Shown piece after piece: positions 7,166 to 58,921 of a DNA stretch of 64,000 bases. Every line of letters begins with the position of its first letter. Positions within the stretch are counted from its first letter, which is position 1. The DNA is from a virus. Both the position numbers and the translations under genes were made by a program. The notes below the pieces were generated by a model. It was not told where the DNA came from. It saw only the letters and a list, made by a program, of their open reading frames with translations, and made no database searches. Where the stretch lies: the IMG/VR virus record IMGVR_UViG_3300046512_000357, positions 1-64,000 of that record; one strand, written 5' to 3'.

Positions 7166-7176
7166 CGTCATTCCTA

Positions 7177-18008: not shown

Positions 18009-18102
18009 CAAATCCGGCAAAGGACGTGCCGTTTCGTTCCCAAATTATATTATTTATTGTTAAATGGAAATCTAGCGAATTGTCACGATGATATTTGAGG
18101 CA

Positions 18103-20254: not shown

Positions 20255-20261
20255 AAATCCA

Positions 20262-20290
20262 AGAATATAAGTAAGCCTAATAATTATCAA
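20262..20290 (-). promoter_or_regulatory. Repressor maintenance promoter (PRM-like)
   Basis: On the minus strand TTGATA (20285-20290), 17 bp, TATTCT (20262-20267). The -35 abuts the operator at 20291-20303, the geometry of lambda OR2/PRM, so bound repressor could activate its own transcription. Confidence 0.65.
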
Positions 20291-38058: not shown

Positions 38059-38538
38059 ATGGCGGCACTCAAGGATGACGTGAAAGCCTTCATCGTGCAG
38101 GCCCTAGCGTGCTTCGACAAGCCCACGCAGGTGGTCGCGCAGGTCAAGGACACCTTCAAGCTCGACGTCACCCGCCAGCAGGTGGAGACATATGATCCGA
38201 CGAAGCACGCCGGCCGGACGCTGAACATCAAGTGGCGCACGCTGTTCGAGGACACCCGCAAGCGCTTTCGCGAGGAGACGGCCGAGATCGGCATCGCCAA
38301 CCGCGCGTATCGCCTACGCGCTCTGGACCGCCTGGCCGAAAAGGCTGAGAGCAAGGGCAACATGCCGCTGGTCATGCAGATCATCGAGCAGGCCGCAAAG
38401 GAAGTGGGCGACCTGTACGTGAACCGCCGACTGGACGCCCCGAAAGCGCCCGTCGGTACCCAAGAGGGCGGCATTCCTGCTGCGCCGGAGTATGTGCTGG
38501 AGCCTGACGAAGATGTCCCAGACCAGCCCGTACTCTGA
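38059..38538 (+). CDS. DUF2280 protein, terminase small subunit
   Basis: A 159-residue protein. AALKDDVKAFIVQALACFDKPTQVVAQVKDTFKLDVTRQQVETYDPTKHAGRTLNIKWRTLFEDTRKRF is the DUF2280 pattern, with an N-terminal HTH as expected for DNA recognition by a small terminase. It is followed and overlapped by the terminase-portal fusion. Confidence 0.88.
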   Translation: MAALKDDVKAFIVQALACFDKPTQVVAQVKDTFKLDVTRQQVETYDPTKHAGRTLNIKWRTLFEDTRKRFREETAEIGIANRAYRLRALDRLAEKAESKGNMPLVMQIIEQAAKEVGDLYVNRRLDAPKAPVGTQEGGIPAAPEYVLEPDEDVPDQPVL

Positions 38539-40111
38539 CCCGCCGGTCAAACTGACGCCGAAGCAGGCAAACATCTACTGCTGGGGATTCCAGAAAAAGG
38601 CCCGCTTCCGCGACGCGGTTTGCGGCCGGCGCTTCGGCAAGACGTTTCTGGGCAAGGCTGAGATCCGCCGTGCGGTGCGCTTGGCCGCCAAGTGGAATGT
38701 CAGCGTCGAGGACGAGATCTGGTACGGCGCGCCGACGTTCAAACAGGCGAAGCGCGTTTTCTGGCGCCGCCTGAAGCAGGCAATCCCGGCCAGCTGGCGC
38801 GCGAGCAAGCCGAACGAGACCGAGTGCTCGATTACGACGAAGGCCGGCCATGTGGTGCGGATCGTTGGTCTGGATTCATACGATAAGCCGTTCGCCGAGG
38901 CGATCACGTACACGGACATCGACCCGGTGGTCGAGGAGTGGCTGGAGAACATCGACCTGAGCGGCAACAACCTGACCGTGTTCGCGCACAGCGTATTCAC
39001 CGAGGGCATGGCTAAGGGGCTGACCCACATCCTGGTGGATATGCCGTCGACGGTGGACAAGGAAGGCCGCCAGAAGTACATCACCAAGGCCGACGAGAAG
39101 GCCGCCGGCCTGCGGCCGTACATGATCCACGTCAAGCCCGGCCAGGTGCTGGGCTGGCGGAGCCAGAAGGGCGCGGACGGCGTCGAGCGGCTAACCATGC
39201 TGCGCATGATGGAGTGCATCGAGGAGGATGACGGCCCATTTGGCGTCAAATCGGTGCCGCAGGTGCGCGTTTTGATCCCGGGCGCCTGGGCCACGTACCG
39301 CGAGGACAAGCAGAAGAAGGGCGAATGGGTGCTGGCCGAAGAGGGCGGCACGTCGATCGACTTCATCCCGCTGGTCACGTTCTACACGAAGCGCACCGGT
39401 TTCATGACCGCCGTGCCGCCGCTGCTGGACTTGGCTGACTTGAACATCAAGCACTGGCAGTCGTCGAGCGACCAGGACAGCATCCTGCACACCGCGCGCG
39501 TACCACTGCTATCGATCACGGGCCTGCAAGACGACGACAAAGTCGAGATCGGAGCCAAATCGTTTTTGCGGCTGCCGATGGGCGCCGAGGCGAAGTACGT
39601 CGAGCACACCGGCGCGGCAATCGATGCCGGCCGCGTGTCCCTGCAGGATCTGGAAAACCAGATGCGCGCTATGGGCGCCGAGCTGCTGGTTGAGACGCAG
39701 GTCGCCAGCACCGCGACCCAGAACAACATCGAGGACAGCGAGGCCAAGTGCCAGCTGTCGCGCATGGTGCAGTCTGAAGAGGACACGCTCGACAACGCCC
39801 TGGACATGATGCACCGCTGGATGAACCTCGAATACAACGGCGCGGTCGATATCTACGACGACTTCTCGTCCGACGCGATCCTGGCTACGGCCGGTCCGTT
39901 CGTGCTGGCGCTGATCCAGCTGGTGAACAACGGCCTGCTCGACAAGGAATCCGCCTTCGAAGAGATGCAGCGCTACGGCATCATCAATCCGGACAAAGTG
40001 TGGCAGGACGTGCAGGCGAAGCTCGAACTTGAGGGGCCGGTGTTCAGTGCGCCGCTGCCTCGGGCTCAGTCACCAGCGCCCACCCCAGCACCGGCGCCGG
40101 CCGTTGAATAA
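38513..40111 (+). CDS. Large terminase-portal fusion (deletion product)
   Basis: A 532-residue chimaera. Residues 1 to about 124 are the start of a large terminase (LTPKQANIYCWGFQKKARFRDAV, Walker A GRRFGKT at 38-44, WYGAPTFKQAKRVFWRRL, VRIVGLDSYD). From about residue 125 (KPFAEAITYTDIDPVVEEWLENIDLSG onward) the protein is a DUF4055 portal (ILVDMP, RPYMIHVKPGQVLGWR, IDFIPLVTFYTKRTGFM, PPLLDLADLNIKHWQSSSDQ). Missing are the terminase Walker B and nuclease domain and the first part of the portal. The junction is near 38885. The simplest reading is an in-frame deletion that leaves the prophage unable to package DNA. Confidence 0.87.
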   Translation: MSQTSPYSDPPVKLTPKQANIYCWGFQKKARFRDAVCGRRFGKTFLGKAEIRRAVRLAAKWNVSVEDEIWYGAPTFKQAKRVFWRRLKQAIPASWRASKPNETECSITTKAGHVVRIVGLDSYDKPFAEAITYTDIDPVVEEWLENIDLSGNNLTVFAHSVFTEGMAKGLTHILVDMPSTVDKEGRQKYITKADEKAAGLRPYMIHVKPGQVLGWRSQKGADGVERLTMLRMMECIEEDDGPFGVKSVPQVRVLIPGAWATYREDKQKKGEWVLAEEGGTSIDFIPLVTFYTKRTGFMTAVPPLLDLADLNIKHWQSSSDQDSILHTARVPLLSITGLQDDDKVEIGAKSFLRLPMGAEAKYVEHTGAAIDAGRVSLQDLENQMRAMGAELLVETQVASTATQNNIEDSEAKCQLSRMVQSEEDTLDNALDMMHRWMNLEYNGAVDIYDDFSSDAILATAGPFVLALIQLVNNGLLDKESAFEEMQRYGIINPDKVWQDVQAKLELEGPVFSAPLPRAQSPAPTPAPAPAVE

Positions 40112-41259
40112 TGAGCGCCCTCGAACAGTGGCTGCTTGAGGTACTGCTCGGCAACGGCATCAAGATGCTGCGCGCCGAGGCTGAGGTCAAGGCCAAGGTG
40201 CTGGCCCTGCTGGTGCTGATGCAGAAGGATTTGGTCAGCGTGCTGGCCAACGCCGGCGAGCTGTCGGTGATGGGTAAGCAGGCCAAGGCTGCGCTGCTGC
40301 GCGAATCGAACGACCTGATCGCCAGCTACTACGGCCGGGCGCTGGTGCAGATGGATCTGTTCGGCGTGGCTGATGTGGAGTCGCTGGGCGTGCGGAAGGC
40401 GCTGGCGGCCGTGATCGAGCGTGCGGCGCCGGGCCACATCAGCGCCGAGGTGCGCCTGGGCCTGAGCATCCCGTCTGAGACCTACCTGAAGAAGCTTGTC
40501 AGCGACGTGCTGATCCAAGGCTCGCCGGCGAAGAGCTGGTGGCTGCGCCAGCAGCAGGACACCCAGTTCAAGGTGGCGACCCAGATCCGCATCGGCGCGG
40601 CGCAAGGCGAGACGAACGCGCAGATCATCAAGCGCATCGTCGGCGAAGAGGCGAAGGTCGTACCGGCCGTGGCCGCGCCGACCGCCAAGGCGCCGGTGCC
40701 GGAGATTCAGCCGGGTATGCCGGGCGTGATGCCGCTGGCGAAGAAGAACGCCGCCGCCATCGTGCAGACGAGCATGGCGACCGTCTCCGCCGCCGCGCGC
40801 CGCGCCGCGCTGGAACTGAACAAGGACGTGACCAACGGCTTCATGCAGGTCAGTACCCTGGACAGCCACACAAGCCTGACGTGCATCGCCTACAGCGGCG
40901 CGTGCTGGAACTGGGAATACGAGCCGATCAATGGCAATGACTTGCCGTGGAACGGCGGCGTGCCGCGCCACTGGAACTGCCGCAGCGCCGAGATTGCGCT
41001 GATGAAGACGCTGCGCGAGATGGGCATCGACATGGACGAGCCAGAGGCTGGCCAGCGCGCTTCAGCCGCCGGCCCGATCAGTGCCAAGACCAGCTTTGCC
41101 GACTTCCTCAAGATGATGGGGCCGGAATACCAGGACGAGACGTTGGGCAAGGGCAGGGCCGAGCTGTTCCGCGCCGGCAAGCTGACGCCGCGCGAGCTGG
41201 TCGACGTATCCGGGCGGCCGCTGAAGCTATCGCAGCTCAAGGAGGAGTACTCGAACTGA
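40111..41259 (+). CDS. Head morphogenesis (Mu gpF-like) minor capsid protein
   Basis: A 382-residue protein. The C-terminal part carries the family pattern (NAAAIVQTSMATVSAAARRAALE, STLDSHTSLTCIAYSGACW, GVPRHWNCRSAEI), with paired Cys. It would be a minor head protein acting with the portal. Start overlaps the previous stop (TAATG). Confidence 0.86.
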   Translation: MSALEQWLLEVLLGNGIKMLRAEAEVKAKVLALLVLMQKDLVSVLANAGELSVMGKQAKAALLRESNDLIASYYGRALVQMDLFGVADVESLGVRKALAAVIERAAPGHISAEVRLGLSIPSETYLKKLVSDVLIQGSPAKSWWLRQQQDTQFKVATQIRIGAAQGETNAQIIKRIVGEEAKVVPAVAAPTAKAPVPEIQPGMPGVMPLAKKNAAAIVQTSMATVSAAARRAALELNKDVTNGFMQVSTLDSHTSLTCIAYSGACWNWEYEPINGNDLPWNGGVPRHWNCRSAEIALMKTLREMGIDMDEPEAGQRASAAGPISAKTSFADFLKMMGPEYQDETLGKGRAELFRAGKLTPRELVDVSGRPLKLSQLKEEYSN

Positions 41260-42408: not shown

Positions 42409-43218
42409 ATGCCATTCAAATTCAACGCCGACGGCACCATTGCGATGGACGCCAACGCGAAACTGCCCATCTTCATCCACCCGAACGGTACCGAGGCGCC
42501 TTTCGACGCGGACAATACGTTGGGCACGATCACGCGCCTGAACGGAGAGGCCAAAACTCACCGCGAGGCCAAGGAAGCCGCTGAGCTGAAGCTGAAGACC
42601 TTCGACGGCATCGAAGACGGCGTGGCCGCGCTGGCCGCCCTGAACACAGTGAAGAGCCTCAGCGTCGGCGACCTGAAGACTGCGGCCCAGGTCAAGGAAA
42701 TCCAGGACGCCGCAGCCAAGACCGCTCAAGAGCAGGTCGCTGCCCAGGCCAAGGCAAACGCGACCCAGATTCAAGAGCTGAGCGCTCAGCTGGAAAAGCG
42801 CACCAACGAACTGAACACCCATATGATCGGCGGCGGTTTCTCCAGCTCGAAGCTGTTCACCGATGACAAGCATCCAGCACGTCTGCAAATCCATCCCGAG
42901 ATGGCAAAGGCATATTTCGGTGCCAATTTCAAGGTCGAGGACGGCAAGATGGTCCCGTACGATGCCGCTGGCAACAAGATCTTTTCGCCGACCCGCCCCG
43001 GCGAGATCGCCGATTTCGACGAGGGCCTGACGCACCTGGTGCAAGCTTGCCCATTTAAAGACCAGATCCTGAAAGCAAGCGGGGCATCCGGCGGCGGCGC
43101 CCAAGGCGGAAAGGGCGGTGCCGGTGCGGCGAAGCAAGTAACGCGTGCTCAGTACGAAGCCGCCGACCCATCCGCGCGTCCAGGCCTGCTGGCCGGCGGC
43201 GCCGTTCTGGTCGACTGA
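42409..43218 (+). CDS. Scaffold-like protein (DUF6651)
   Basis: A 269-residue protein: FKFNADGTIAMDANAKLPIFIHPNGTEAPFDADNTLGTITRLNGEAKTHREAK, a central Ala/Gln coiled coil (QVKEIQDAAAKTAQEQVAAQAKANATQIQELSAQLEKRTNEL) and a Gly-rich C terminus. Position directly before the coat gene supports a scaffold role. Confidence 0.82.
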   Translation: MPFKFNADGTIAMDANAKLPIFIHPNGTEAPFDADNTLGTITRLNGEAKTHREAKEAAELKLKTFDGIEDGVAALAALNTVKSLSVGDLKTAAQVKEIQDAAAKTAQEQVAAQAKANATQIQELSAQLEKRTNELNTHMIGGGFSSSKLFTDDKHPARLQIHPEMAKAYFGANFKVEDGKMVPYDAAGNKIFSPTRPGEIADFDEGLTHLVQACPFKDQILKASGASGGGAQGGKGGAGAAKQVTRAQYEAADPSARPGLLAGGAVLVD

Positions 43219-43380: not shown

Positions 43381-44745
43381 ATGAAGAAAACCATGCTGTC
43401 GGTCATGGCGCTGTGCGCTCTGGTCTTCTCCTCGGCCGCTCACGCGGTCACCGCCTTCGGTCACAAGGCCTGCGATGTTGTCGCGGCCGTACCGGCGAAA
43501 GCGGAGTTCTACGCCCGCGTCGTCGCCGAACTGGGCTATCGCTACCTGTGGAACTACTCGGCGCGCACCGGCCTGATCCTGGGCGCCAACAACCTGACCG
43601 GCCTGATCACCTCGATCTACAACGCGATGGACGTAGTCTCCCGCGAGCAGGTCGGCATGATCCCGGCGGTCACGGCGGACATGACGTTCGCCCGAGCTGC
43701 TGTTGGCCAGACCGTGACCTCGCCGGTCGCACCGGCCGCGACCGCAACGGACATCACGCCGGCCGTGACGCCGCCAAATGATGGCGACCAGAATATCGGC
43801 AACAAGTCGGTGACGCTGACCAAGGCCCGCCGCGTGCCGATCCGCTGGAATGGTGAAGAAAAGCTGGCACTGGACAACAACGGCGCCAGCTACAACATCA
43901 TCCTGCGCGATCAAATCGCCCAAGGCATGCGCACGCTGTGCAACGAGGTCGAGAGCGACTTGGCTGCGCTGCACGTGAAGGCATCGCGTGCCTACGGCAC
44001 CCCCGGCACTGCACCGTTCGGCACCGCTGCCGACCTGAGCGATACCGCCGGCGCGCTGCGCATCCTGGAAGACAACGGTGCACAAGGCCTGGATTTCCAG
44101 CTGGTGCTGGGTTCGGCCGCCATGCAAAACATGCGCGGCAAGCAGTCGGGTCTGTTCAAAGTAAATGAGGCCGGCCGCGAAGACATGCTGCGCAACGGCA
44201 TCACCGACCGCCTGCAAAACTTCGCGCTGCGCCAGTCCGGCCAGATCAAACGCCCAGTGGCCGGTACCGCTGCAGGTGCGACGACCAACGCCACTGGCTA
44301 TGCTGTTGGCGCAACGGTCATCACCCTGGCTGCCGCCGGCACGGGCTCCCAACTGGCTGGCGACGTAATTCAGTTCGCCGGTGATGCCAACAAGTACGTA
44401 GTGTCCAGCGGCGATGCGAGTTCGGCCGATGGCGGCACGATCACGCTGGCGGCACCTGGCCTTCTGCAGGCAATCCCGGCGGCTGCGACTGCCATCACGG
44501 TAGCGGCACAGGGCTTCCGCAACATGTTCTTCGCCCGATCGGCCATCGTCCTGGCCACGCGCGTGCCCGCGCTGCCGGCGCAAGGTGACTCGGCCGTCGA
44601 TCGCACCATCGTGACCGATCCCGTATCTGGCCTGTCGTTCGAGATCAGCATGTACATGCAATACCGCCAAGTGCAGCTGGAAATTGCACTGGTCTGGGGC
44701 GTGGGTTCGGCCAAGGATGAGCATATCGGCATCCTGCTGGGCTAA
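43381..44745 (+). CDS. P22-type major capsid protein with signal-like N terminus
   Basis: A 454-residue protein. From about residue 66 it is a P22 coat-family protein (ANNLTGLITSIYNAMDVVSREQVGMIPAV, DITPAVTPPNDGDQNIGN, ITKARRVP-like TLTKARRVPIRWNGEE, DQIAQGMRTLCNEVESDL, DPVSGLSFEISMYMQYRQVQLEIALVWG). Residues 1-65 are extra: a textbook Sec signal (KKTMLSVMALCALVFSSAAHA) and about 40 further residues. AAAGG lies 7 bp before this ATG, and no start codon or ribosome site exists at the usual family start. A 12-bp direct repeat (43567 and 43597) flanks the join. Confidence 0.88.
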   Translation: MKKTMLSVMALCALVFSSAAHAVTAFGHKACDVVAAVPAKAEFYARVVAELGYRYLWNYSARTGLILGANNLTGLITSIYNAMDVVSREQVGMIPAVTADMTFARAAVGQTVTSPVAPAATATDITPAVTPPNDGDQNIGNKSVTLTKARRVPIRWNGEEKLALDNNGASYNIILRDQIAQGMRTLCNEVESDLAALHVKASRAYGTPGTAPFGTAADLSDTAGALRILEDNGAQGLDFQLVLGSAAMQNMRGKQSGLFKVNEAGREDMLRNGITDRLQNFALRQSGQIKRPVAGTAAGATTNATGYAVGATVITLAAAGTGSQLAGDVIQFAGDANKYVVSSGDASSADGGTITLAAPGLLQAIPAAATAITVAAQGFRNMFFARSAIVLATRVPALPAQGDSAVDRTIVTDPVSGLSFEISMYMQYRQVQLEIALVWGVGSAKDEHIGILLG

Positions 44746-46888: not shown

Positions 46889-47386
46889 ATGCTGACTATC
46901 GAAACCGGCGCCGGCCTGCCGAATGCCGAGAGCTACGCCAGCGTGGCGCAGGCTGATGCACGTTGCGCAGCGCTGGGTGTGACTGATTGGGCGCCGCGCG
47001 CGGACGCCGACAAGGAAGTGGCGCTGCGCAACGCGACCCAGTTCATGCTGGCGACGTACCGGAGCCGCTGGGCGGGCCGCCGCGTCTATCAGGCGCAGGT
47101 TCTGGACTGGCCGCGCTGGAATGTGGTGGTGGACGGCTTCCCGGTGCTCAGCACCATCGTGCCGGTCGAGGTGGTGAACGCCTGTATCGACCTGGCTGCG
47201 CGTGCCGCCGGCGGCACCGAACTGTTGCCGGATCTGGAACGCACCATCAAGCAGGATACCGTCGGCCCGATCACCACCATCTACGAGGACGGCTCGCCGG
47301 AACGCCCGCGCTACACGGCCGTCGACAGCATGCTCGCGCCGTACCTGTGCGGCTCGGGGACGTCGGGAAGGCTGGTGCGCGGATGA
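46889..47386 (+). CDS. DnaT-like head-tail connector
   Basis: A 165-residue protein: GLPNAESYASVAQADARCAALG, VALRNATQFMLATYRSRWAGRRVYQAQVLDWPRW, VVNACIDLAARAAGG is the pattern of the phage DnaT-like/connector family that docks under the portal. Confidence 0.82.
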   Translation: MLTIETGAGLPNAESYASVAQADARCAALGVTDWAPRADADKEVALRNATQFMLATYRSRWAGRRVYQAQVLDWPRWNVVVDGFPVLSTIVPVEVVNACIDLAARAAGGTELLPDLERTIKQDTVGPITTIYEDGSPERPRYTAVDSMLAPYLCGSGTSGRLVRG

Positions 47387-47757
47387 GTGGCTATCCGGTT
47401 GTGAAGATCGAGGGGTGCGCCGTACACGAGAACACCTATTCGACCGACGGCAAGGTTTGGTCGGTCACGAATCTGATATCGCATGCGAAGGATCTGGTGC
47501 CGTTCGACCTGCCGCTGGCAGCCATCTACCTTGGCACCGAGGTGTGGACACCAGAAGGTTCAGTCTTTGGGCTGGCATTCCACATGCGCCGCGCGCTGGA
47601 CGTGGACACGAGCTATCCCGTCATCATGTGCGAGAAGGGCTTCATCATGGATGGCTGGCACCGAGTGCTGCGCGCGCTGATCGACGGAAAGGCCACCATC
47701 AAGGGGGTGCGCTTCAAAAAGACTCCGCCTCACGACTATCTGGAAACGAAGGCATGA
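47383..47757 (+). CDS. ParB-N-like small protein
   Basis: A 124-residue protein. Its end (YPVIMCEKGFIMDGWHRVLRALIDGKATIKGVRFKK) resembles the ParB/sulfiredoxin fold (G-x-x-x-D-G-x-H-R). It sits within the connector genes with 4-bp overlaps at both ends. Enzymatic role not evident. Confidence 0.65.
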   Translation: MSGYPVVKIEGCAVHENTYSTDGKVWSVTNLISHAKDLVPFDLPLAAIYLGTEVWTPEGSVFGLAFHMRRALDVDTSYPVIMCEKGFIMDGWHRVLRALIDGKATIKGVRFKKTPPHDYLETKA

Positions 47758-48137
47758 GCAACTACGCAGCCAAGGCGAAGAGCACCGACAAGACGTTCCG
47801 CCGCAGCGGCCAGCTGCTGACGTTGACCTTCAAGCAGCCGGGAGCCTACGTTGGCGGTGCGCAAATCCCGGGTGTGCCGATCACGAAGCACGCCTGGGGC
47901 ATCGAAACCGGCGTCACCGCGCACGACCTGGGCGTCGGCACGATCAACGGCACGCTGATCAAGTCCGGAGACCGCAAGATCCTGATGTCCGCGCTGGACG
48001 ACACCGGCGCCGCGCTGCCGTCGATGAAGGAAGACGACCTGGTGCTGGCCGGCGGCGTAGTCTACAAGGTAAAGAACATCGACAAGGTCGCGCCGGGCGG
48101 CTTGGTGGTGCTGTGGCAGCTGGTGGCGCGGATCTAA
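47754..48137 (+). CDS. Head-tail joining/completion protein
   Basis: A 127-residue protein (QLLTLTFKQPGAYVGGAQIPGVPITKHAWGIETGVTAHDLGVGTINGTLIKSGDRKILMSALD), beta-rich, in the position of stopper proteins between connector and tail-completion genes. Confidence 0.75.
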   Translation: MSNYAAKAKSTDKTFRRSGQLLTLTFKQPGAYVGGAQIPGVPITKHAWGIETGVTAHDLGVGTINGTLIKSGDRKILMSALDDTGAALPSMKEDDLVLAGGVVYKVKNIDKVAPGGLVVLWQLVARI

Positions 48138-48727
48138 TGACTTCATTCGCGCTACAGATTCGAGCCTGGGTGGACAAGACCAAGGGCGACCTGGACACGG
48201 CCGTGCGCTATTGCGCGCTGGCCGTGGACGGCAAGCTGATGTACCGGTCGCCGGTTGGTGACCCCACAACCTGGAAGGTGAATCCGAACAAGCCGAAGGT
48301 ATTCGGCAAGTTCAGCTCGGCCGGGCCGAAGGCGAACTGGCAACTGGGCTTCCTGAGCAAAGGCGCGTCGACTTACCGCACGTCCGGTGCCGGCTACGTC
48401 GGCGGCCGCTTCCGTGGCGCCTGGATGGTGTCCATCGGCTCGCCGGACAATTCGATGGGCACAGTAGTGGACCCAAGCGGCAATATCACACTGGAAGCAC
48501 ACAAGGCGATCATCGCCGCGGCGAAAGCTGGCGACGTGATCCATTTTCGAAACAACATGCCCTACGCGGTTCGCCTGGAGCAGGGCTGGTCGAAGCAGGC
48601 ACCGCTCGGCATGGTGGCGCTGACGGTGGTCGAGTGGAACGTCATCGTGGACAACGTGGTCAACGGGATCCGCGCCGGCACCAGCGCGGCCGATTTCGCG
48701 CAGGGCTTCAATACCTATTCGCTATGA
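48137..48727 (+). CDS. Tail-completion (HK97 gp10-like) protein
   Basis: A 196-residue protein: FALQIRAWVDKTKGDLDTAVRYCALAVDGKLMYRSPVGDP, FRGAWMVSIG, DVIHFRNNMPYAVRLEQGWSKQAPLGMVALTVVEW is typical of gp10-type neck proteins (YA..LE.GWS.QAP.GMV). Start overlaps the previous stop. Confidence 0.85.
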   Translation: MTSFALQIRAWVDKTKGDLDTAVRYCALAVDGKLMYRSPVGDPTTWKVNPNKPKVFGKFSSAGPKANWQLGFLSKGASTYRTSGAGYVGGRFRGAWMVSIGSPDNSMGTVVDPSGNITLEAHKAIIAAAKAGDVIHFRNNMPYAVRLEQGWSKQAPLGMVALTVVEWNVIVDNVVNGIRAGTSAADFAQGFNTYSL

Positions 48728-49137
48728 CCATTCCCAATATCAGGAACGCGCTGGAGACGGCGCTGGCCAGCATCGCGCCGGCGATCGACATCGTGCATGA
48801 GAACGGCGAGCGATACGAGCCGCAAGACGGCGTGCCGTACTGCGAAGCCTACCTGCTGGTGGCCGAGCCGAGCAACCCGGTTATGGGGCAGGCCTTCCAC
48901 CGCGAGGCGGGCGTTTTCCAGATCAATCTGCAATACCCGCTGTTGGCGGGCACGCTGCCTTGCGCAATCCGCGCGGAGCAGGTGCGCGCGCTGTTCAAGC
49001 GCGGCTCCATGTTCACCGACGGCGGCGTCGAAGTCCAGATCGACAAGACACCAGAGATCGCGGCCGGCGCGCCAGACGAGGGGCGCTGGCGACAGACCTG
49101 CCGGATCCGCTGGCACGCCGACATCTTTACCGAGTAA
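48724..49137 (+). CDS. DUF4128 tail-terminator-like protein
   Basis: A 137-residue protein: NIRNALETALASIAPAIDIVHENGERYEPQDGVPYCEAYLLVAEPSNP, HREAGVFQINLQYPLLAG, EQVRALFKRG matches DUF4128, thought to cap the tail tube. Followed by a terminator. Confidence 0.84.
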   Translation: MTIPNIRNALETALASIAPAIDIVHENGERYEPQDGVPYCEAYLLVAEPSNPVMGQAFHREAGVFQINLQYPLLAGTLPCAIRAEQVRALFKRGSMFTDGGVEVQIDKTPEIAAGAPDEGRWRQTCRIRWHADIFTE

Positions 49138-49144
49138 CCACTGA

Positions 49145-49166
49145 AACTGCCGAAAGGCGGTTTTTT
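49145..49166 (+). terminator. Terminator between tail-terminator and tail-tube genes
   Basis: AACTGCC-GAAA-GGCGGTT, a stable tetraloop hairpin followed by further T. Partial termination would set the ratio of head and tail transcripts. Confidence 0.8.
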
Positions 49167-49215
49167 CATTCTGGCCATCCATGTGATGGCCTTTTTCTTT
49201 TCTGAAAGGCATCAC

Positions 49216-50421
49216 ATGACGACCACTGCAAACGGTATTGACAGCCTGCTGGTCCTGGCGAAGCAAAGTGCCGAGGGCACCCAGGCGCTGGCCGCCGGCG
49301 GCAAGGTGTATCCACGCGTTACCGCAACGTTCGACACGGAGGCGGATAAGTACAGCTCGAACGAAATCGACCAGAGCCAGCAGCAGAGCGACACCCGCTT
49401 GGGCAACTTCCGTGTCGCCGGCGCGCTGAACGCGGAGGCGTCGTGCGGCACCTACGCTGATCTGATCGCAGCGCTGCTGCGCCGTGACTTTGCCGCAGCC
49501 GGTACGACCGCCGCTGCCGCCACCATCGCCGCCGTCGCCGACGGTTTCACCCGCTCTGCCGGCTCGTTCCTCGCTGACGGTCACCGCGCCGGCACGGTGG
49601 TGCGCATCACCGGTTTCGCGGCGCCGGCCGCAGCGAACAATGGTAAGAACTTCTTCCTGACGGCCGTGACCGCTGGCAAGCTGTCCGGTCAGTTCCTGGA
49701 CGGCAGCAGCATCATCACCAAGGCGGCCGGCGACAACGTTGCTATCGCGGCACCGGGCAAGCGCACTTTCACCCCGTTGACCGGCCACACGCGCGACTGG
49801 TTCACTGCGGAAGTACAGGATCCGGGCATTTCCGTGAATCGCGTCTTCGTGGACAACTTCGTCAGCAAGGGCGACTTGTCGATCCAGCCGAACGGCCTGA
49901 CCACCCTGAACTTTACCCTGATGGGCAAGAAGGAACTGGATACCACGCCAGCACCTTATTTTGCCGCGCCAGCGGCGGCGCCCGGCACCGGCAAGTTTTC
50001 CGGCGCCACCGCAATGCTGTCGGTGGCGGGTATCCCGTCGCTGATCTGCACGGGCATGTCGCTGAGCATCGATGGCCAGGGCAAGCTGGACAGCGTCATC
50101 GGTACCAAGTACGCCACCGCAGCGTCGCGTGGCAAGGTGATGGGCTCCGGCCAGTTCACCGTTCTGATGCAAGACAGCGCTTACCTCGACTACTTCAAAA
50201 AGGAAATCGAGGTATCGCTGGCTTATGTGATGGCCGCCGGCAGCGCGCCGTTGGCAGATTGCATCGCGATCTCGGCCGGCCGCATCAAGATCACTTCCGC
50301 CAAGGTCGATGACGGCGAGAAGAACAAGATCATCACCTGCGCGTTCGACGTGCTGCGCTCCTATGCGACCGACACGCAGTTCGATAGCACCACGATCGCC
50401 TGGCAAGACACCACCCTGTAA
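49216..50421 (+). CDS. Major tail tube protein
   Basis: A 401-residue protein. GIDSLLVLAKQSAEGTQALAAGGKVYPRVTATFDTEADKYSSNEIDQSQQQSDTRLGNFRVAGALNAEASCGTYADLI is the phage tail tube family. A central insertion with repeated strand pairs (residues about 95-170) could be an Ig-like or decoration domain. GAAAGG lies before the ATG. Confidence 0.86.
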   Translation: MTTTANGIDSLLVLAKQSAEGTQALAAGGKVYPRVTATFDTEADKYSSNEIDQSQQQSDTRLGNFRVAGALNAEASCGTYADLIAALLRRDFAAAGTTAAAATIAAVADGFTRSAGSFLADGHRAGTVVRITGFAAPAAANNGKNFFLTAVTAGKLSGQFLDGSSIITKAAGDNVAIAAPGKRTFTPLTGHTRDWFTAEVQDPGISVNRVFVDNFVSKGDLSIQPNGLTTLNFTLMGKKELDTTPAPYFAAPAAAPGTGKFSGATAMLSVAGIPSLICTGMSLSIDGQGKLDSVIGTKYATAASRGKVMGSGQFTVLMQDSAYLDYFKKEIEVSLAYVMAAGSAPLADCIAISAGRIKITSAKVDDGEKNKIITCAFDVLRSYATDTQFDSTTIAWQDTTL

Positions 50422-50547
50422 TCCACCGCCGACGCTGCCGGCATCCCACTTTGGCGCAAGCCACCCCAGCACCGACCGGTCGCTGTCGCCTTCGCGGGCG
50501 CGGCGGCCGGCACGGGCACCTATCTACCCGCGAAGAAAGGCAACACC

Positions 50548-51048
50548 ATGTCCCTGAACACCGCTCAAACCATCGCCGCCATCGGCTTCGACATCGCCAA
50601 CCTGACCGCCGTCGATGCCTCGCCGGCGACCCACAAAGTGGACCTGCTGTTCGATGAAGACGGCAACGCTACGGCCGGCTTCATTATCGTCGGCAAGAAC
50701 AGCCCGGAATACCAGGCCGAGAGCCACGCCGTGCGCGCCGAGGGTCACAAGCGCTCCGCGATCCGCAAAACTGCGATCGACACCAAGACCGACGAGGGCG
50801 CCAGCAAACTGGTGGACGTCATCGACAGCAACGCCACCCGCCTCGCGCTGTCGGTGGTGACGGACTGGTACGGCTTCACCAGCGCCGGCGCGCCGGTACC
50901 GTTCGACAAGACGCTGGTCAAGGCCGCGTTCGCTAAATACCCGACCTGGGAAGACAAGGTGAACGCCGCGCTGGAGGTTGACGCGAATTTTTTGAAAGTC
51001 TCGTCGCCAGCCTCGTCGCCTTCGCCGACCACCAGTTCGAACGCCTAA
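50548..51048 (+). CDS. Tail assembly chaperone, short form (gpG-like)
   Basis: A 166-residue protein coded between tube and tape measure genes (MSLNTAQTIAAIGFDIANLTAVDASPATHKVDLLFDEDGNATAGFIIVGKNSPEYQ), the place of lambda G. A slippery heptamer at 50988-50994 allows a -1 shift into the downstream frame, giving the longer GT-like form. Confidence 0.85.
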   Translation: MSLNTAQTIAAIGFDIANLTAVDASPATHKVDLLFDEDGNATAGFIIVGKNSPEYQAESHAVRAEGHKRSAIRKTAIDTKTDEGASKLVDVIDSNATRLALSVVTDWYGFTSAGAPVPFDKTLVKAAFAKYPTWEDKVNAALEVDANFLKVSSPASSPSPTTSSNA

Positions 51049-51353
51049 GCAAAGCCGCCGACGGTAATTCCGTTGGCGATCACGTCGACGCCGCGAAGCG
51101 CCACCCGCTTTACAAGGCGGAAGAGGCGCCGCCGGCGCCGGACTTGCCATTCGAGCTTGCCTACATCTGGGAATGGTTCCTGAAGCTCAGCCGAAAGCGG
51201 CAGAGCGGGATGGTACCCAGCCCCATCACCAGCGAGGAGGTCCTCTGCTGGTGTGCCCGCCAGGGCATCTCCTTCACCCCGTTTGAAAACAGCGTCATCG
51301 ACCAGCTCGACGACCTGTACCTGTCGCACCAATACAAGAAGAAGGAAAAGTGA
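50548..51353 (+). CDS. Tail assembly chaperone, frameshifted long form (gpGT-like)
   Basis: Joining 149 codons of the short form with 119 residues from 50994 in the -1 frame (ESLVASLVAFADHQFERLSK ... ELAYIWEWFLKLSRKRQ ... IDQLDDLYLSHQYKKKEK) gives about 268 residues. The T-part has no ribosome site of its own. In lambda the G:GT ratio governs tail assembly around the tape measure, which follows here with a TGATG overlap. Confidence 0.8.
50988..50994 (+). promoter_or_regulatory. -1 programmed frameshift site
   Basis: T TTT TTG in the reading frame of the chaperone gene. After slippage translation continues as ESLVASLVAFADHQFERLS through to the stop at 51353. Confidence 0.8.
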
Positions 51354-54300
51354 TGCCTGATATCGCCACACTCGGACTTGAAGTCAATTCCTCGCAGATC
51401 GTCGAGGGCAAGAACGCGCTCGACCAATTCGCGGAGTCGAGTGTCAAGGTCGAGCAGGCGGTGCGCTCCACCAATGGCCAAATGAATGACACGGCCAAGA
51501 TCATGAAGTCCCAGGCGGATGCTGCGAAAGCAGCCGAAGATGCGAACAATAAGTTCCTGGCGTCGCTGGAGCGTGAGATTGCCGTGTTCGGCATGGGGCG
51601 CGGCGAGCTGGAGCGCTACAAGGCCGCCGAGTTGGGTTTAGGCAGCGCCGCGCAGAGCAAGGCGATGGCTCTGGGTATGTCGATCGATGCGCTGCACCGC
51701 GAAGAAGCTGAGATGCGCGCATTGTCCGCCGCCCAAGACAAGGCTGCCGCCTCCGGTGACGCATTCATAAAAAAATTGCAAGATCAGGTCGCCACTCTGG
51801 GCATGAGCGCTCAGCAGTTGCAGGCATATCGCGCCGCGCAGCTGGGGGTGAGTGATGCGGCGGCGCCGCTGATCGCGAAACTTGGCGAGGCCGGCGCTGG
51901 CGCGCATGGTGCTGGCAAGCATCTGGAAGGACTGAGCTTGTCCACGGTCGCGGCCAAGCGCGAATTGCTGGTGCTGGCGCATGAGCTCAGTCAAGGGAAT
52001 TACTCGAAATTCGGCGGCTCGATGATGGTCCTGGGCGAACAAACGGGCGCGGCCGGCTTGCTGTTCAGCTCGACTGGGATCGCTGCGTTGGCGTTCGCCG
52101 GTGTGCTGGCGGCCGTGGGCTATGCACTGATCAAAGGTGCATCCGACCAAAAACACATGAACGATGCGCTGGTGATGACCGGGAACTACGCCGGCGTGAC
52201 CAGCGACAAGCTGAACGATCTGGCGCATGCGGCGGTGGAGGCTGGTGGAAGCCTGGGCGAGGCCAAGAAGGTTGCGACCGAATTGGCAGGTAGCGGGAAA
52301 TTCACCGGCGATCAGATTGGCTACATCACCGAAGCGACTGTGGCCTGGGAGCATGCCACGGGCATGTCTGTCAAAGCCATCATCAAAGACTTTGAATCGC
52401 TAGCTGTGCAGTCCACCAGCACCGGCACGCGCGCGACTGAGGCCATCTCGCGCGCTGCCCTTAAGCTGGATGACCAGTACCACTTCCTGACGGAAGCGGT
52501 GTACGAGCAGATACGTGCACTCGAGAAAGAGGGCGACGCTAAGGCCGCGTCTGCACTGGCTACCGAGACGTTTGCCAAGGTGACGCACGATCGTGCCGAA
52601 GAGATCCTTGCAAACTTGGGCTCGATTGCGCGCGGCTGGAACACCATCAAGGAGGTTATTGGCCAAGCGGGTGACGCAGTCGGTAAGTTCGGCGCGCGCG
52701 CCACACCGGCGACCGAGGTGGCGAAACAAAGCACGCGTCTCCGTATGTTCGACGAGGGATTAGCATCTTCAAACGAGCGCCTGGGGCGCCCCGCTGATGC
52801 TATGAGCGCTGACCTTGCCGCTGCCCGAAACCGCATCGTACTACAACTGACCGAGGCGGTCACGAAGCTGAACGAGGCTGATGCTGCTGCGATCGCACAG
52901 GGAAAAAACGCAGCCACACAGTCGGCAGGCGCGCACGCCGCATCCATGCTGGCCGCAAGCGACGCCAAGCACCTGAAAGAGACCAAGCTCGAACTGGCGC
53001 TGGCGTCCAATAAGGAATACGAGGCAGCCATTCGCGCAGCCAATCCGGACAGCGCTCTGATCACCGAGAAGGCGATCGAGGAGCGGCGCCTCAAAACCAT
53101 CAAGGACAACACCGACAAAGCGCCGAAGGCGAAGGTTGACCAGGTGGAAAGCACCGAACTCGCCGACCGGCTCGCGCGCATCCAAGATCTGGTCAATGCC
53201 GACAAAGAAATGTACGGCACCATGTCCAAGATGGAGGACATGTTCCATGCCGCCGGAAAGATGGGTGACGAGGAATACTACCAACTGCAACGCGACCACA
53301 TCGTCGCGGTCGGCCAAGATCAGGCTTACGGGTACACCAAACAGATCGCGGAATTGAAGGCCTACAACAATGCCACCGCAGCTGAGGCCGCCAAGCACGC
53401 GAAGCAAATCAACGACATCGACGAAAAGCGCAAGGCCGCCGACGCCAAAATGCAGGACGAACTGAGTCTGCTCGATGCAAAGGAATTTTTGCGCAAGGAG
53501 GCTGTCGAAGCTGCATCGGATCAGGCGCTTAACACGTACCTCAGCGGCTTAGATCAAGAGGCGAAGAAGTTGGAGCTTTCCAACCAGGCACACGAGACTT
53601 CGAAAGGCGCGATTGAGCGCGAATCGATCGCCCGGTTGGACGCCGCTATCGCACAGCAACAGCAGCTCGTGGCTGGTCAAAATTCTGACACGGCAACTGA
53701 GAAGGAGATTGCCCAAGGCACCCGCCTGCTCAAGTTTCTTGAGGATGAGCGTGCCGCCCGCGCGCGTATAGCAGCCGGTCTCGATCAGCAGCAGGCCATC
53801 CAGTACAAGGACAAGGCTGCCGACCAGGCCATCAAGGACTGGCAGCGCGCCGGCCAGAGCATTTCCGAAAGCCTGACGTCCGCGTTCGGCGAAGGCGGGA
53901 AGGCGCTGGGCAGTATGTTCCAAGCGTACGCGAAAGGTATGGAGGGGCAGCTGCGCGCGCAGAAGGAGCTGGCAGCCGCTAAGAAGCTTGCCGAGGACAA
54001 CCCTGACAAGATCGCCGCAATCAACCGCGCCCAGTTGTCCGGCGCACAGTCGCAGATCCAAGGATATGCCGGCATGACGGCCGCCGCGCAGGGCTTCTTC
54101 ACCGAAGGCTCGCGCGGCTATCAGGCGATGCACGCCGCGACCGTCGCATTGCAAGGTGCCGAAGTTGCGCTGAGCCTGATCAAGGGCGTCAATGCCGTGC
54201 TGACCCAGGGCGAGGGCGATCCTTACTCTGCCTTCGTGCGCATGGCGGCGATGGCTGCCATCGTGACCGGCTTGGGTGTGGCGATTTCCGGTGGCGGTGG

Positions 54301-56551
54301 TGGCGGTGGCGGCCAGTCCGCTGCCGACGTCCAGAAGGCGCAGGGCACGGGTTCCGTGTTCGGCGACAGCTCGGCGAAGTCGGATTCGGTCCGGCGCTCG
54401 ATCGAGCAGCTGACCGCGAACTCGTCCGACATGCTGCCGATCAATCAGGGCATGCTGACCGCGCTTCAGAACATCGAATCGTCGATGACGGGGCTGACGA
54501 ACCTGGTGGTGCGCACCACGGGCCTGACCGATGGCGCGAACATGGGCATCCAGACCGGCACGATCGCGACGGGTGGCGCAGTTGCGCTCGCCGGCAGCGC
54601 CCAGGTGGGCAGCATGATTGGCGGCGCGTTGGCAGGCCCGCTCGGGGTTTGGATCGGCGGTGCGATCGGTGGCGCCGTGTCCAAGCTCTGGGGAAAAACT
54701 ACCCAGAACATCGTCGATTCCGGCTTGCAGTACGGCGGTAGCGTGCGCAGCTTGCAGGCTGGTCAGGGCTTCGACCAATACGCCAGCATCGACACGACCA
54801 AGTCCAGCTTCTTTGGCCTGTCAAAGAGCACGAGCAACCGCGTGGAGGTGCAAGGCCTGAACGACGAGCTGTCGAAGCAATTCGGCCTGATCTTCACGAA
54901 CCTAGACAAGTCGCTTCAGGCTGCTGCCACTGCCATGGGCGGCTCGGCAGCCGACGTGACAAAGGTGCTGGACAACCTGACGCTGGAAAGTTCGAAAGTA
55001 TCGCTTAAGGGCCTGACCGGCACCGCGCTGACCGATGCGCTGAACTCTGTCATCTCGAAGTCGATGGATGAGATCGCGGAAGCGGCGTTCCCGCAGCTGG
55101 ATCAGTTCCGGACGGTGGGCGAGGGCTATGCCGAGACGGTGATGCGCCTGGCCGGCGATTACGCCAAGCTCGATTCGATCCTGGCTGCCAGCAGCACGAC
55201 GTTCGGCGCCACCGGTATGGCCAGCATCGCCGCGCGCGAGCACCTGATCGAATTGGCCGGCGGCATCGATCAGCTGGCAACGCAAACAAACTCCTTCACC
55301 CAGAATTTCCTGTCGACCGCCGAGCAGCTGGCACCGGTCCAAAAGTACGTCACCGACCAGCTCGCGGCCATGGGCCTGCAAAGCCTGGATACCCGGGACA
55401 AGTTCAAGGATTACGTGCTGGGCCTGGCCAACTCCGGCGCGCTCGCGACCGAGACGGGCGCGCAGCAGTACACCGCGCTGCTGGCCTTGGCCGATGCCTT
55501 CGCCAAGACCCACGCGGCAACGGTCGACCTGACAAAGTCGGAGCAGGAAATCACCGACGAGCGTACCGACCTGCAGAACAAGCTCGACGAACTGACCATG
55601 ACGCAGGCTCAGCTGGCCGACAAGGCTCGCGCCGCGATCGACGGCCACAATCAGGCCCTGTACGACCAGGTAACGGCGGCGCAGGCAGCGAAGGACGCAG
55701 CAGACGCCCTTGCCAACACCAACAAGGGCTATCAGGATCAGATCGATGCGCTGTTGAAGTCGACCATGTCGGCCACGCAGGTGCGCGCGCTTGAAACGGC
55801 GGGCATGGACGCGAGCACGCTTGCGCTGTATGACCGTCTGGCTGGCCTACATGCTTCGATTGATGCAGAAAAGGCAGCATCCGATGCCATCAAGGCGGCC
55901 CAGGCGTCGTCTGCTACTGCGATGAACAGTTTCGGCGACGCGCTTGCAGGAAGCATGAAGGCGGCTACCGAAGCCGCCGCCGCGTTCCGCGCGCTGAATG
56001 ATGCGCTGCTGATTGGCGACTCGTCCGCTCTCAATCCTGAACAGAAATACTTGGAGGCGAAGCGCCAGTTCGACACCGCTGACGGCTCGAATCTGGAAGC
56101 GGCAGAAAAAGCCTTCCTTGATGCATCGAAATCGTGGTTCGGTGGCAGTGCTGGCTATGCGGCAGATTTCGCCGCCGTCATCGCAAAGAACAGTCAGTTC
56201 GCCGACGCGAGCGATGCGCAGGCCGCTGCGATTCCAGCTTTCTGGGCCGCGATTAAAAACCAGATGATGGGCATCGACGGGTCGCATGCGAATGGCCTGG
56301 ACTTTGTGCCTTTCAATGGGTATCGCGCTGAACTTCACTATGGCGAGCGGGTGCAGACTGCCGCTGCAGTTCGGAGCGGAGATGCGGCCGCCGAGCGCAC
56401 GAACACTTTGCTGGAGGAAGTGCTGACCGAGCTGCGCGCCGACAAGTCGCAGCGCGGCGCTGTCGGCACGGAGACCATTGCGAAGCTCGACCGCCTAGCG
56501 GACAAGATGGATGCTCAGAAACGTACAACGCGCGCCAAGGAAACTGCATGA
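51353..56551 (+). CDS. Tail tape measure protein
   Basis: A 1,732-residue protein. The N terminus (PDIATLGLEVNSSQIVEGKNALDQFAESSVKVEQAV) and repeated helical segments are typical. Hydrophobic stretches occur at about residues 225-255 (LLFSSTGIAALAFAGVLAAVGYALIKG), 960-985 (AAMAAIVTGLGVAISGGGGGG) and 1065-1100 (AVALAGSAQVGSMIGGALAGPLGVWIGGAIGG), which may insert into the host membrane during ejection. At about 0.15 nm per residue the tail would be near 260 nm. AGGAAAAG lies before the ATG. Confidence 0.95.
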   Translation: MPDIATLGLEVNSSQIVEGKNALDQFAESSVKVEQAVRSTNGQMNDTAKIMKSQADAAKAAEDANNKFLASLEREIAVFGMGRGELERYKAAELGLGSAAQSKAMALGMSIDALHREEAEMRALSAAQDKAAASGDAFIKKLQDQVATLGMSAQQLQAYRAAQLGVSDAAAPLIAKLGEAGAGAHGAGKHLEGLSLSTVAAKRELLVLAHELSQGNYSKFGGSMMVLGEQTGAAGLLFSSTGIAALAFAGVLAAVGYALIKGASDQKHMNDALVMTGNYAGVTSDKLNDLAHAAVEAGGSLGEAKKVATELAGSGKFTGDQIGYITEATVAWEHATGMSVKAIIKDFESLAVQSTSTGTRATEAISRAALKLDDQYHFLTEAVYEQIRALEKEGDAKAASALATETFAKVTHDRAEEILANLGSIARGWNTIKEVIGQAGDAVGKFGARATPATEVAKQSTRLRMFDEGLASSNERLGRPADAMSADLAAARNRIVLQLTEAVTKLNEADAAAIAQGKNAATQSAGAHAASMLAASDAKHLKETKLELALASNKEYEAAIRAANPDSALITEKAIEERRLKTIKDNTDKAPKAKVDQVESTELADRLARIQDLVNADKEMYGTMSKMEDMFHAAGKMGDEEYYQLQRDHIVAVGQDQAYGYTKQIAELKAYNNATAAEAAKHAKQINDIDEKRKAADAKMQDELSLLDAKEFLRKEAVEAASDQALNTYLSGLDQEAKKLELSNQAHETSKGAIERESIARLDAAIAQQQQLVAGQNSDTATEKEIAQGTRLLKFLEDERAARARIAAGLDQQQAIQYKDKAADQAIKDWQRAGQSISESLTSAFGEGGKALGSMFQAYAKGMEGQLRAQKELAAAKKLAEDNPDKIAAINRAQLSGAQSQIQGYAGMTAAAQGFFTEGSRGYQAMHAATVALQGAEVALSLIKGVNAVLTQGEGDPYSAFVRMAAMAAIVTGLGVAISGGGGGGGGQSAADVQKAQGTGSVFGDSSAKSDSVRRSIEQLTANSSDMLPINQGMLTALQNIESSMTGLTNLVVRTTGLTDGANMGIQTGTIATGGAVALAGSAQVGSMIGGALAGPLGVWIGGAIGGAVSKLWGKTTQNIVDSGLQYGGSVRSLQAGQGFDQYASIDTTKSSFFGLSKSTSNRVEVQGLNDELSKQFGLIFTNLDKSLQAAATAMGGSAADVTKVLDNLTLESSKVSLKGLTGTALTDALNSVISKSMDEIAEAAFPQLDQFRTVGEGYAETVMRLAGDYAKLDSILAASSTTFGATGMASIAAREHLIELAGGIDQLATQTNSFTQNFLSTAEQLAPVQKYVTDQLAAMGLQSLDTRDKFKDYVLGLANSGALATETGAQQYTALLALADAFAKTHAATVDLTKSEQEITDERTDLQNKLDELTMTQAQLADKARAAIDGHNQALYDQVTAAQAAKDAADALANTNKGYQDQIDALLKSTMSATQVRALETAGMDASTLALYDRLAGLHASIDAEKAASDAIKAAQASSATAMNSFGDALAGSMKAATEAAAAFRALNDALLIGDSSALNPEQKYLEAKRQFDTADGSNLEAAEKAFLDASKSWFGGSAGYAADFAAVIAKNSQFADASDAQAAAIPAFWAAIKNQMMGIDGSHANGLDFVPFNGYRAELHYGERVQTAAAVRSGDAAAERTNTLLEEVLTELRADKSQRGAVGTETIAKLDRLADKMDAQKRTTRAKETA

Positions 56552-58062
56552 TCCTGATCGAACTGACGGCTGGGGTCGATGCAGCCGGAACGCTGCGTAC
56601 GTTCTACGTGTCCACCGACAGGTTCGCGACCGAACCTAGCGACTCGCCGGCCGACACGAGCTTCCTTCCATGCGTGGCCGATCCCGGATCCATCGGACTG
56701 CATGCATTCTCCGACGGCCGGACCAGCGGCCGCACGAAGCTGGAAGTCGGCGAGATCACGCTGATCAACGTTGATGGAGAGCTGGACGACTGGGTGCGCT
56801 ATTCCTTCGATGGTCGTCCACTCACGATCCGCAGCGGCGTGGCCGGCCCGTATCCGTCGGCGTTCAAGACGGTCCTGGTCGCCACCGTTGACGGTGTCGA
56901 TACCACCTGGGATAAGGTCGTCATCCGTATAAAGGACAAACAGTTTCTATTCGATAAGCCGGTGCTGACCGCACTGTACGGCGGCGCCAACGTGCTGCCC
57001 AACGGCGTCGACGGCGCGGCGGACCTGAAGAGCAAGGCGAAGCCGCGCGCGGCGGGTGTCGTTTTCAACGTGTCGCCGCCGATGGTGAACACGTCGCGGC
57101 TGATTTTCGAGGTGGGCACCTGCAACGCGGTCGACCACGTCTATTCGAATGGCGCGGAGCTTACTGCCGGCGCGGTTTATATGTCCCAGGCGGATATGGA
57201 GGCGAACTCGCCTGCCTCCGGGTACTTCCGCGCCTGGCCGGCCGGCGGCTACTTCCGGATCGGATCGTACGACGCGCAGCAAATCACGGCCGACGTCACG
57301 CAAGGCGCCACTCCCGCGCAGCGAACTGTCGGGCAGGTGCTCGCGGCGCTGGCGGTGGCCGCCGGCATTCCCACTGCGGATATCGTGATGACCGACGTTT
57401 CTGCACTTGACGCGCTGAACGCCAGCCCGGTGGGAATCTGGTTGGACGACGACTCGACGACCTTCGCCAGTGCCATGGATCAAGTGGCCGCAAGCATCGG
57501 TGCATGGTATGGCTTCGACGGCAGCGGCATGCTGCGTATGGGGCAACTGACCGAGCCGGTTGGGCCACCGAAGGCGATCCTGGCCGAGTACGACATCCTC
57601 GATGGCATCGAACGGCGCGCGCCGGCCGACAACGGCATGCCGGCCTGGAGCGTCACGGTCAACCATACCCGCAACTACACCGTGCAGACGTCCGGGTTAG
57701 CCGGATCGGCGGCGACGCGCCAACCGTTTGTCAGCCAGGAGACGCGCGCTGCGAATGCTGTGGCGGCCACGATTAAAACGCAGTGGCTGCTGGCCAGCAC
57801 CATCACGGTCGACACGCTACTCACAACGCCGACGGCCGCAGACGCAGAGGCGGCGCGCCTGTTGGCGCTTTACAAGGTGCGGCGGGACATCTTTGAGATC
57901 CCGGTTGCGCTCTCCGTTCTGACCTCCACGGGCATTTGGCTGCTCGACGTGATCGGCGTGGACCACCCGCGCTTCCAGCTCAATACCGGCAGGCTGTTTC
58001 GCGTGATCGGCGTCGCGCTCGAGAACGGCAGCAATAAAGCAATTTTGACTATCTGGGGATGA
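56548..58062 (+). CDS. Tail-tip/baseplate hub-like protein
   Basis: A 504-residue protein directly after the tape measure (4-bp overlap). Beta-rich N-terminal domain (LRTFYVSTDRFATEP, GRTKLEVGEITLINVDGELDDW), middle hub-like region (TLTALYGGANVLPNGVDG-type) and a C terminus ending FQLNTGRLFRVIGVALENGSNKAILTIWG, as in phage proteins of the distal tail/hub. The family is inferred mainly from position. Confidence 0.75.
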   Translation: MILIELTAGVDAAGTLRTFYVSTDRFATEPSDSPADTSFLPCVADPGSIGLHAFSDGRTSGRTKLEVGEITLINVDGELDDWVRYSFDGRPLTIRSGVAGPYPSAFKTVLVATVDGVDTTWDKVVIRIKDKQFLFDKPVLTALYGGANVLPNGVDGAADLKSKAKPRAAGVVFNVSPPMVNTSRLIFEVGTCNAVDHVYSNGAELTAGAVYMSQADMEANSPASGYFRAWPAGGYFRIGSYDAQQITADVTQGATPAQRTVGQVLAALAVAAGIPTADIVMTDVSALDALNASPVGIWLDDDSTTFASAMDQVAASIGAWYGFDGSGMLRMGQLTEPVGPPKAILAEYDILDGIERRAPADNGMPAWSVTVNHTRNYTVQTSGLAGSAATRQPFVSQETRAANAVAATIKTQWLLASTITVDTLLTTPTAADAEAARLLALYKVRRDIFEIPVALSVLTSTGIWLLDVIGVDHPRFQLNTGRLFRVIGVALENGSNKAILTIWG

Positions 58063-58063
58063 A

Positions 58064-58921
58064 ATGAGTAACTGTATGCTGGGATTCCCAAACCGTGCCG
58101 ATATCGCCGTGCTGAGCGGCGGCGCCTGGTCGGCGAAGCTGCCGCTGACGAACTTGCTTGATCGGACAATCGGGCGCGTAGCTCGTACCACCAACACGGC
58201 GCCGTCAAGCTCGACCATCGTCATTGACCTAGGCAAAAGCACCAACGTGCGCGATGTGACACTGCGCAATCACAACCTCTCGCTTGCCAGCCGATACCGG
58301 GTGACGGCATCGACTGTGCCTGATTTCTCTGTGCTGACTTACGACTCTGGCTGGGGCGACGTCTGGCCAGAAGTTTATGCCTGGGGCACGCTGGAGTGGG
58401 AAGACGACAACTTCTGGTCTGGCAAATACACCGCCGAGGAGACACAGGGCTACACCACTCAGCTCGATCACATCCTACCGATGGCCAAGGCCCTACGCTA
58501 CTGGAAGATTGAGCTGAGCGACCCGACGAACCCGGCAGGGTACATCCAGGCGGGCAGGCTGTTCATCGGCCCGGTCTGGCAGCCAAAGCTGAACATGAGC
58601 TATGGCGCCTCCTTGGCGTGGGAGACGAGCACGACGGCACAGGCCGCGATCAGTGGCGCCGAATATTTCGACCGCCGCACGCCGTTCCGAGTGGCCCGTT
58701 TTTCGATTGACTGGATGGAGCAGGACGAAGCATTTTCCAAGGCGTTCGAGTTGCAGCGCCAAGCCGGCATCGATCAGGAAGTTCTCTTTATTCACGACGC
58801 CGACGATACCGTGCACGCCCTGCGCCGTCGATTCCTCGGCCGCCTGCGCACGCTCGGCCCAATTGAATACCCGTATTTCAACATAAACAAAGCCGCCTTT
58901 GAAGTGAAGGAACGTCTGTAA
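58064..58921 (+). CDS. Distal tail protein
   Basis: A 285-residue protein: SSSTIVIDLGKSTNVRDVTLRNHNLSLASRYRVTASTVPDF is a carbohydrate-binding (discoidin-like) jelly-roll pattern, followed by ALRYWKIELSDPTNPAGYIQAGRLFIGPVWQP. Common next to hub genes in siphoviruses. Confidence 0.78.
   Translation: MSNCMLGFPNRADIAVLSGGAWSAKLPLTNLLDRTIGRVARTTNTAPSSSTIVIDLGKSTNVRDVTLRNHNLSLASRYRVTASTVPDFSVLTYDSGWGDVWPEVYAWGTLEWEDDNFWSGKYTAEETQGYTTQLDHILPMAKALRYWKIELSDPTNPAGYIQAGRLFIGPVWQPKLNMSYGASLAWETSTTAQAAISGAEYFDRRTPFRVARFSIDWMEQDEAFSKAFELQRQAGIDQEVLFIHDADDTVHALRRRFLGRLRTLGPIEYPYFNINKAAFEVKERL

What the first reader, a model, noticed from the sequence alone, without database searches (positions are those of the whole stretch)
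38513..40111. In-frame fusion of large terminase to portal: packaging-defective prophage or new packaging protein
About 124 residues of a terminase ATPase with an intact Walker A run straight into a DUF4055 portal lacking its N terminus. The Walker B, nuclease domain and portal start are absent, implying loss of more than 1 kb at about 38885 with the frame kept. Every other late gene looks intact, so the event is probably recent, or the element lives on by another packaging route.
Basis: partly seen in the sequence, partly recalled or inferred. Interest (0 to 1): 0.8.

Follow-up and report, generated by a model that had tools for sequence, protein, structure and literature searches.

The report
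Deletion fusing terminase to portal
A bacterial prophage has lost about 1.2 kb spanning most of its DNA-packaging motor gene and the start of the next gene, leaving one joined but almost certainly useless protein, so it probably cannot package its own DNA; this is ordinary prophage decay (or a sequencing join), not a new machine.

Summary
Window 38513-40111 is one open frame that joins TerL codons 1-124 directly to a DUF4055-type portal from its residue K73. Four close relatives (88-91% nucleotide identity on both sides) carry separate, intact terL and portal genes. Against them the window lacks 1175-1176 bp: TerL residues 125-439, the short intergenic gap and portal residues 1-72. The lost TerL part holds the DNLRG arginine-finger motif, Walker B and the whole nuclease domain. 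The join has only a 2-nt overlap, and about one random join in three would be in frame, so neither feature needs a special cause. No second terL was found in the 65,298-bp record. The fusion was found in no other sequence searched. The other head and tail genes compared with relatives are intact. Window-private changes in the fused gene are nearly all synonymous, so the event is recent, or a chimeric join. The record ends exactly at gene borders, so it is probably a prophage trimmed from a longer contig. Best reading: a recent illegitimate deletion making a packaging-defective prophage. A functional fusion is very unlikely. Reads were not available, so an assembly or amplification chimera stays open.

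The parts
38059..38538 (+). DUF2280 protein, probable small terminase; overlaps the TerL start by 26 bp, as in relatives
   Evidence: Pfam DUF2280 2.1e-45; same arrangement in L002; role as small terminase is inferred from position
38513..38884 (+). TerL remnant, codons 1-124, Walker A intact
   Evidence: phrog_2 1.8e-10; residues identical to L002 TerL 1-123; the only phrog_2 match in the record
38885..38886 (.). deletion junction; 2-nt overlap (AA); 1175-1176 bp missing against intact relatives
   Evidence: blastn pieces and junction alignment
38885..40111 (+). portal remnant from K73 of the intact protein, read in the TerL frame
   Evidence: phrog_145 2.9e-108, DUF4055 1.1e-44; 95-96% identical to L002/L004/L007 portals
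40111..41259 (+). head morphogenesis (Mu F-like) protein, full length
   Evidence: phrog_241 5.8e-74; 94-95% identity over the full length in relatives
42409..43218 (+). scaffold-type protein, full length
   Evidence: phrog_784 and phrog_206 head scaffolding; 99.6% to L004 over the full length
43381..44745 (+). major capsid protein, P22 coat-like, full length
   Evidence: phrog_283 3.6e-95; 96-97% to L002/L004 over the full length
46889..58921 (+). neck, tail, tape measure and further tail-region genes, open
   Evidence: PHROGs connector and tail families; full-length or near full-length matches in L013/L014/L015

Best explanation
In an integrated, otherwise complete-looking temperate siphovirus, probably of a Duganella-type host, one illegitimate (microhomology-level) deletion of about 1175 bp removed the 3' 72% of terL and the first 72 codons of the portal gene (shown by comparison). 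The joined ORF encodes 124 residues of TerL fused to a portal lacking its N terminus. Inferred: TerL is dead, with no arginine finger, Walker B or nuclease. The truncated, TerL-capped portal is unlikely to form a working ring. After induction the phage would make heads without DNA at best, plus tails. The prophage persists only because it is replicated with the host chromosome.
For: L002, L004, L006 and L007 carry separate intact terL (439 aa) and portal (480-486 aa), collinear with the window and 88-91% identical on both sides of the join. In host-family genomes 10 of 11 strong TerL-side matches end at the junction base (query 187), the two strong portal-side matches start at 182 and 186, and in genome G400 the two halves sit about 1.17 kb apart. 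TerL motifs lost: DNLRG aligned to 4zni (4znj has A at the R), Walker B VDEW, Terminase_6C nuclease domain. The lost portal residues include 22 columns invariant in 12 relatives and lie inside the match to solved portal chains. No other terL found in the record. No fusion found elsewhere. Private codon changes: TerL remnant 0 nonsynonymous and 7 synonymous, portal 1 and 18, so almost all of the branch was under selection.
Against: No reads are held, so the join itself is unverified in any cell. Purifying selection up to the tip also fits a join made during sequencing, and formally fits a functional fusion. The packaging defect is inferred, not measured.
Confidence: 0.75

Rival explanations
1. 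The join is an artefact: a chimeric read, whole-genome-amplification chimera or misjoin between two places in an intact phage, or between co-occurring related phages.
For: No read support can be checked here. The fusion is a singleton. No decay is seen on either side. Closely related phages occur in several metagenomes, so mixtures are plausible.
Against: Only 2-3 nt are shared at the join, far below the overlap that a short-read assembler needs to collapse. The same relative (L004) fits both sides at about 90%, so no switch of parent is evident.
Confidence: 0.2
2. The deletion is real, but the element is still mobilised in trans by an intact related phage or prophage in the same cell, which supplies TerL and portal.
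For: Structural, replication, integration and repressor genes are present. Near-identical TerL and portal proteins occur in related phages, so complementation is mechanistically easy.
Against: No positive evidence. The record is probably a prophage trimmed at gene borders, so the rest of the host genome cannot be searched.
Confidence: 0.08
3. The fusion is a working packaging or portal component, for example a portal with an N-terminal ATP-binding domain.
For: The frame is open across the join, Walker A is intact, and private changes in the fused gene are nearly all synonymous.
Against: No Walker B, arginine finger or nuclease; 72 conserved portal residues are missing. No second example was found. 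No substitute TerL was found in the record. Relatives without the fusion show the same synonymous excess, so it can simply be inherited.
Confidence: 0.02

Closest known systems
Cryptic or defective prophages with deletions in packaging and head genes
   Same: An integrated temperate phage with a lesion in essential late genes while the rest is intact
   Different: The deletion happens to fuse two reading frames; nothing else is unusual
terL-portal pair of the intact relatives L002/L004/L006/L007 (Terminase_6N/6C TerL and DUF4055 portal)
   Same: First 123 TerL residues identical to L002; 95-96% identical portal in L002/L004/L007; same gene order
   Different: Two separate full-length genes; 1175-1176 bp more
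Pseudomonas phage YMC11/02/R656 (KT968831) packaging genes
   Same: Same order: DUF2280 protein, TerL, portal; both parts of the query match (47%)
   Different: TerL and portal are separate genes (two matching pieces)
Portal knockout (ORF60) of phage Sp5 (PMC5155283)
   Same: Precedent that loss of the portal leaves head-like particles but blocks packaging of phage DNA
   Different: Engineered single in-frame deletion in a podovirus, not a natural lesion in two genes

Membership tests
Functional large terminase (TerL) | Walker A | tested here: met
   GRRFGKTF, identical to relatives
Functional large terminase (TerL) | Walker B with catalytic carboxylate, and arginine-finger motif | tested here: not met
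   DNLRG...ALVDEW of L002 (aligned to 4zni) lies in the deleted part from N125 on
Functional large terminase (TerL) | RNase H-like nuclease domain (Terminase_6C) | tested here: not met
   Present at residues 266-422 in L002; absent from the window ORF; no match to that part of L002 TerL in the record
DUF4055-type portal | DUF4055 domain | tested here: met
   E 1.1e-44, full profile
DUF4055-type portal | Complete N-terminal region | tested here: not met
   Residues 1-72 missing; present in all 12 relatives aligned and covered in solved portal chains
Defective prophage | Integrated temperate phage genes (integrase, CI-type repressor) | tested here: met
   Integrase at 1-1110, repressor at 19508-20290; record ends at gene borders
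Defective prophage | No infectious particles on induction | not testable with these tools
   Needs the strain

The most novel reading that the evidence does not exclude
The TerL-portal fusion is a functional part of the virion or packaging apparatus that borrows motor activity in trans, so that the element still makes DNA-filled particles with a helper's terminase.
Probability: 0.02. Interest if true: 0.6.

Novelty: new member of a known kind. Interest (0 to 1): 0.12.

Why it matters
If real, it is one more recent example of prophage inactivation through loss of packaging genes while the rest stays intact. Practically, annotation pipelines would label this ORF a portal and could count the prophage as intact. 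The mechanism and outcome are expected.

Tried and rejected
Structure prediction of the fusion and of the intact portal gave mean pLDDT 34 and 41, unusable; no fold search was made on them. Collapse at a direct repeat: rejected, only 2-3 nt shared; 18% of random joins share at least 2 nt and 6% at least 3. Recombination between two different phages at the join: no change of nearest relative seen. A second terL in the record: none found. Wider decay: not seen in the late genes compared. Literature on natural terminase-portal fusions: nothing seen in two searches.

Full report
Observation. The ORF at 38513-40111 (532 aa from the conserved start; open from 38492) is as described. Residues 11-120 match the large-terminase family phrog_2 (1.8e-10) and residues 125-511 match the portal family phrog_145 (2.9e-108) from profile position 79; Pfam finds a complete DUF4055 domain. 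The gene lies directly after a DUF2280 protein (probable small terminase, an inference from position) and before a Mu F-like head protein, then scaffold-type and P22-like coat genes, neck, tail and tape measure genes.

Comparison with intact relatives. A scan of IMG/VR gave loci L002, L004, L006 and L007 with portals 90-96% identical and, on the left, TerL genes with the same first 123 residues (L004 and L007 differ at one). In all four, terL (439 aa) and portal (480-486 aa) are separate. The blastn pieces end and restart at window 38885-38886. The window text TAC GAT AAG CCG joins TerL TAC GAC AAC CTG to portal GCC AAG CCG. Missing DNA: 1175 bp against L002, 1176 bp against the other three. 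The overlap is 2 nt (AA), or 3 if the private GAT was once GAC; 18% of random joins in this region share at least 2 nt and 6% at least 3, so no repeat need have driven the event. As about one join in three fits the frame, an open fusion is no surprise.

What is lost. The TerL of relatives and its alignment to the solved ATPase 4zni place the DNLRG motif (R replaced by A in 4znj) and Walker B VDEW just after residue 124, and the Terminase_6C nuclease domain at 266-422. A review (PMC7617512) states that trans-acting arginine fingers of P74-26 and others are indispensable for ATP hydrolysis; that 4zni is the P74-26 enzyme and that this R is its finger is from my own knowledge. The missing 72 portal residues contain 22 columns invariant among 12 relatives, and the portal profile matches solved portal chains from profile position 3-8 on. 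A portal knockout in phage Sp5 blocks packaging though head-like particles form (PMC5155283). So the packaging defect follows from established function; it was not measured. The structure predictions were too poor to use.

Is it unique, and how old? The junction pattern, degenerate at the codons, occurs nowhere in IMG/VR (records very near the window's own may be left out). In 394 genomes of the family of Duganella aquatilis (L011), the DNA query across the junction gave 13 strong matches in 12 genomes. None crosses the join: 10 of the 11 TerL-side matches end at query base 187 (window 38886), the other ends earlier, and the two portal-side matches start at 182 and 186. In one genome (G400) both halves lie about 1.17 kb apart. 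The protein search of 295 genomes of this family gave terL and portal only as separate matches. Among the listed phage and plasmid records, those that match both TerL and portal do so in two pieces; a few single-piece matches start at residue 56-100, which I read as the portals' own N termini (inference). Codons private to the window are 7 synonymous and 0 nonsynonymous in the TerL remnant, 18 and 1 in the portal. Had the gene been drifting for much of that branch, nonsynonymous changes should outnumber synonymous ones. The join is thus very recent, or was made in the laboratory or the assembler.

The element. Integrase at the left edge, CI-type repressor, RecT, RdgC, replication genes, head and tail genes: a temperate siphovirus. 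The late genes compared with relatives are full length or nearly so. No other terminase was found in the 65,298-bp record. The record starts at the integrase stop codon and ends at the start codon of a minus-strand frame, and the longest exact direct repeat between the two end regions is 12 nt, so I infer that it was cut from a longer host contig by a provirus-trimming program. The host chromosome, and any helper prophage in it, is not available.

Module exchange around the same place. Some relatives have the same TerL type with a portal only about 42-44% identical (L008-L012), others a near-identical portal with a TerL of another type at about 34% (L003, L005). These exchanges leave both genes whole, unlike the window's join inside both genes. 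They show that the border is a natural module boundary, which makes a failed exchange an alternative to a simple deletion; nothing in the data separates the two.

Verdict. Artefact remains possible at about one in five. A functional fusion is very unlikely. Interest is low.

Noticed in passing
window 5561-7180 (-): RdgC exonuclease domain with a C-terminal FtsK-gamma (DNA-reading) domain in one 539-aa protein. Pseudomonas and Achromobacter phages match both ends of it, in two pieces, so the combination is not unique.
   Followed up: partly
L003, L005, L008-L012, terL-portal border: Natural exchange of TerL and portal types between related phages: near-identical portal with another type of TerL, and the reverse.
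   Followed up: partly
window 17460-18020 (-): DUF2939 protein matching the candidate defence family PDC-S55 (1.7e-40) in an A+T-rich stretch near the repressor region.
   Followed up: no
window 41489-42280 (+): A 263-aa protein with weak similarity to LmuA (5.7e-07) sits between the Mu F-like and scaffold genes, with lower third-position G+C than its neighbours; not matched in L002, L004 or L007, so it looks like an inserted extra gene.
   Followed up: no
window 45324-46886 (+): 520-aa protein with a weak GDSL-hydrolase match after the coat gene; 98% identical in L004 and L007, but only the first 90 residues match in L002.
   Followed up: no
window 62357-63649 (-): 430-aa protein of low third-position G+C (0.39) with no Pfam or PADLOC match, next to an SRAP gene that runs to 64347 of the record.
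   Followed up: no
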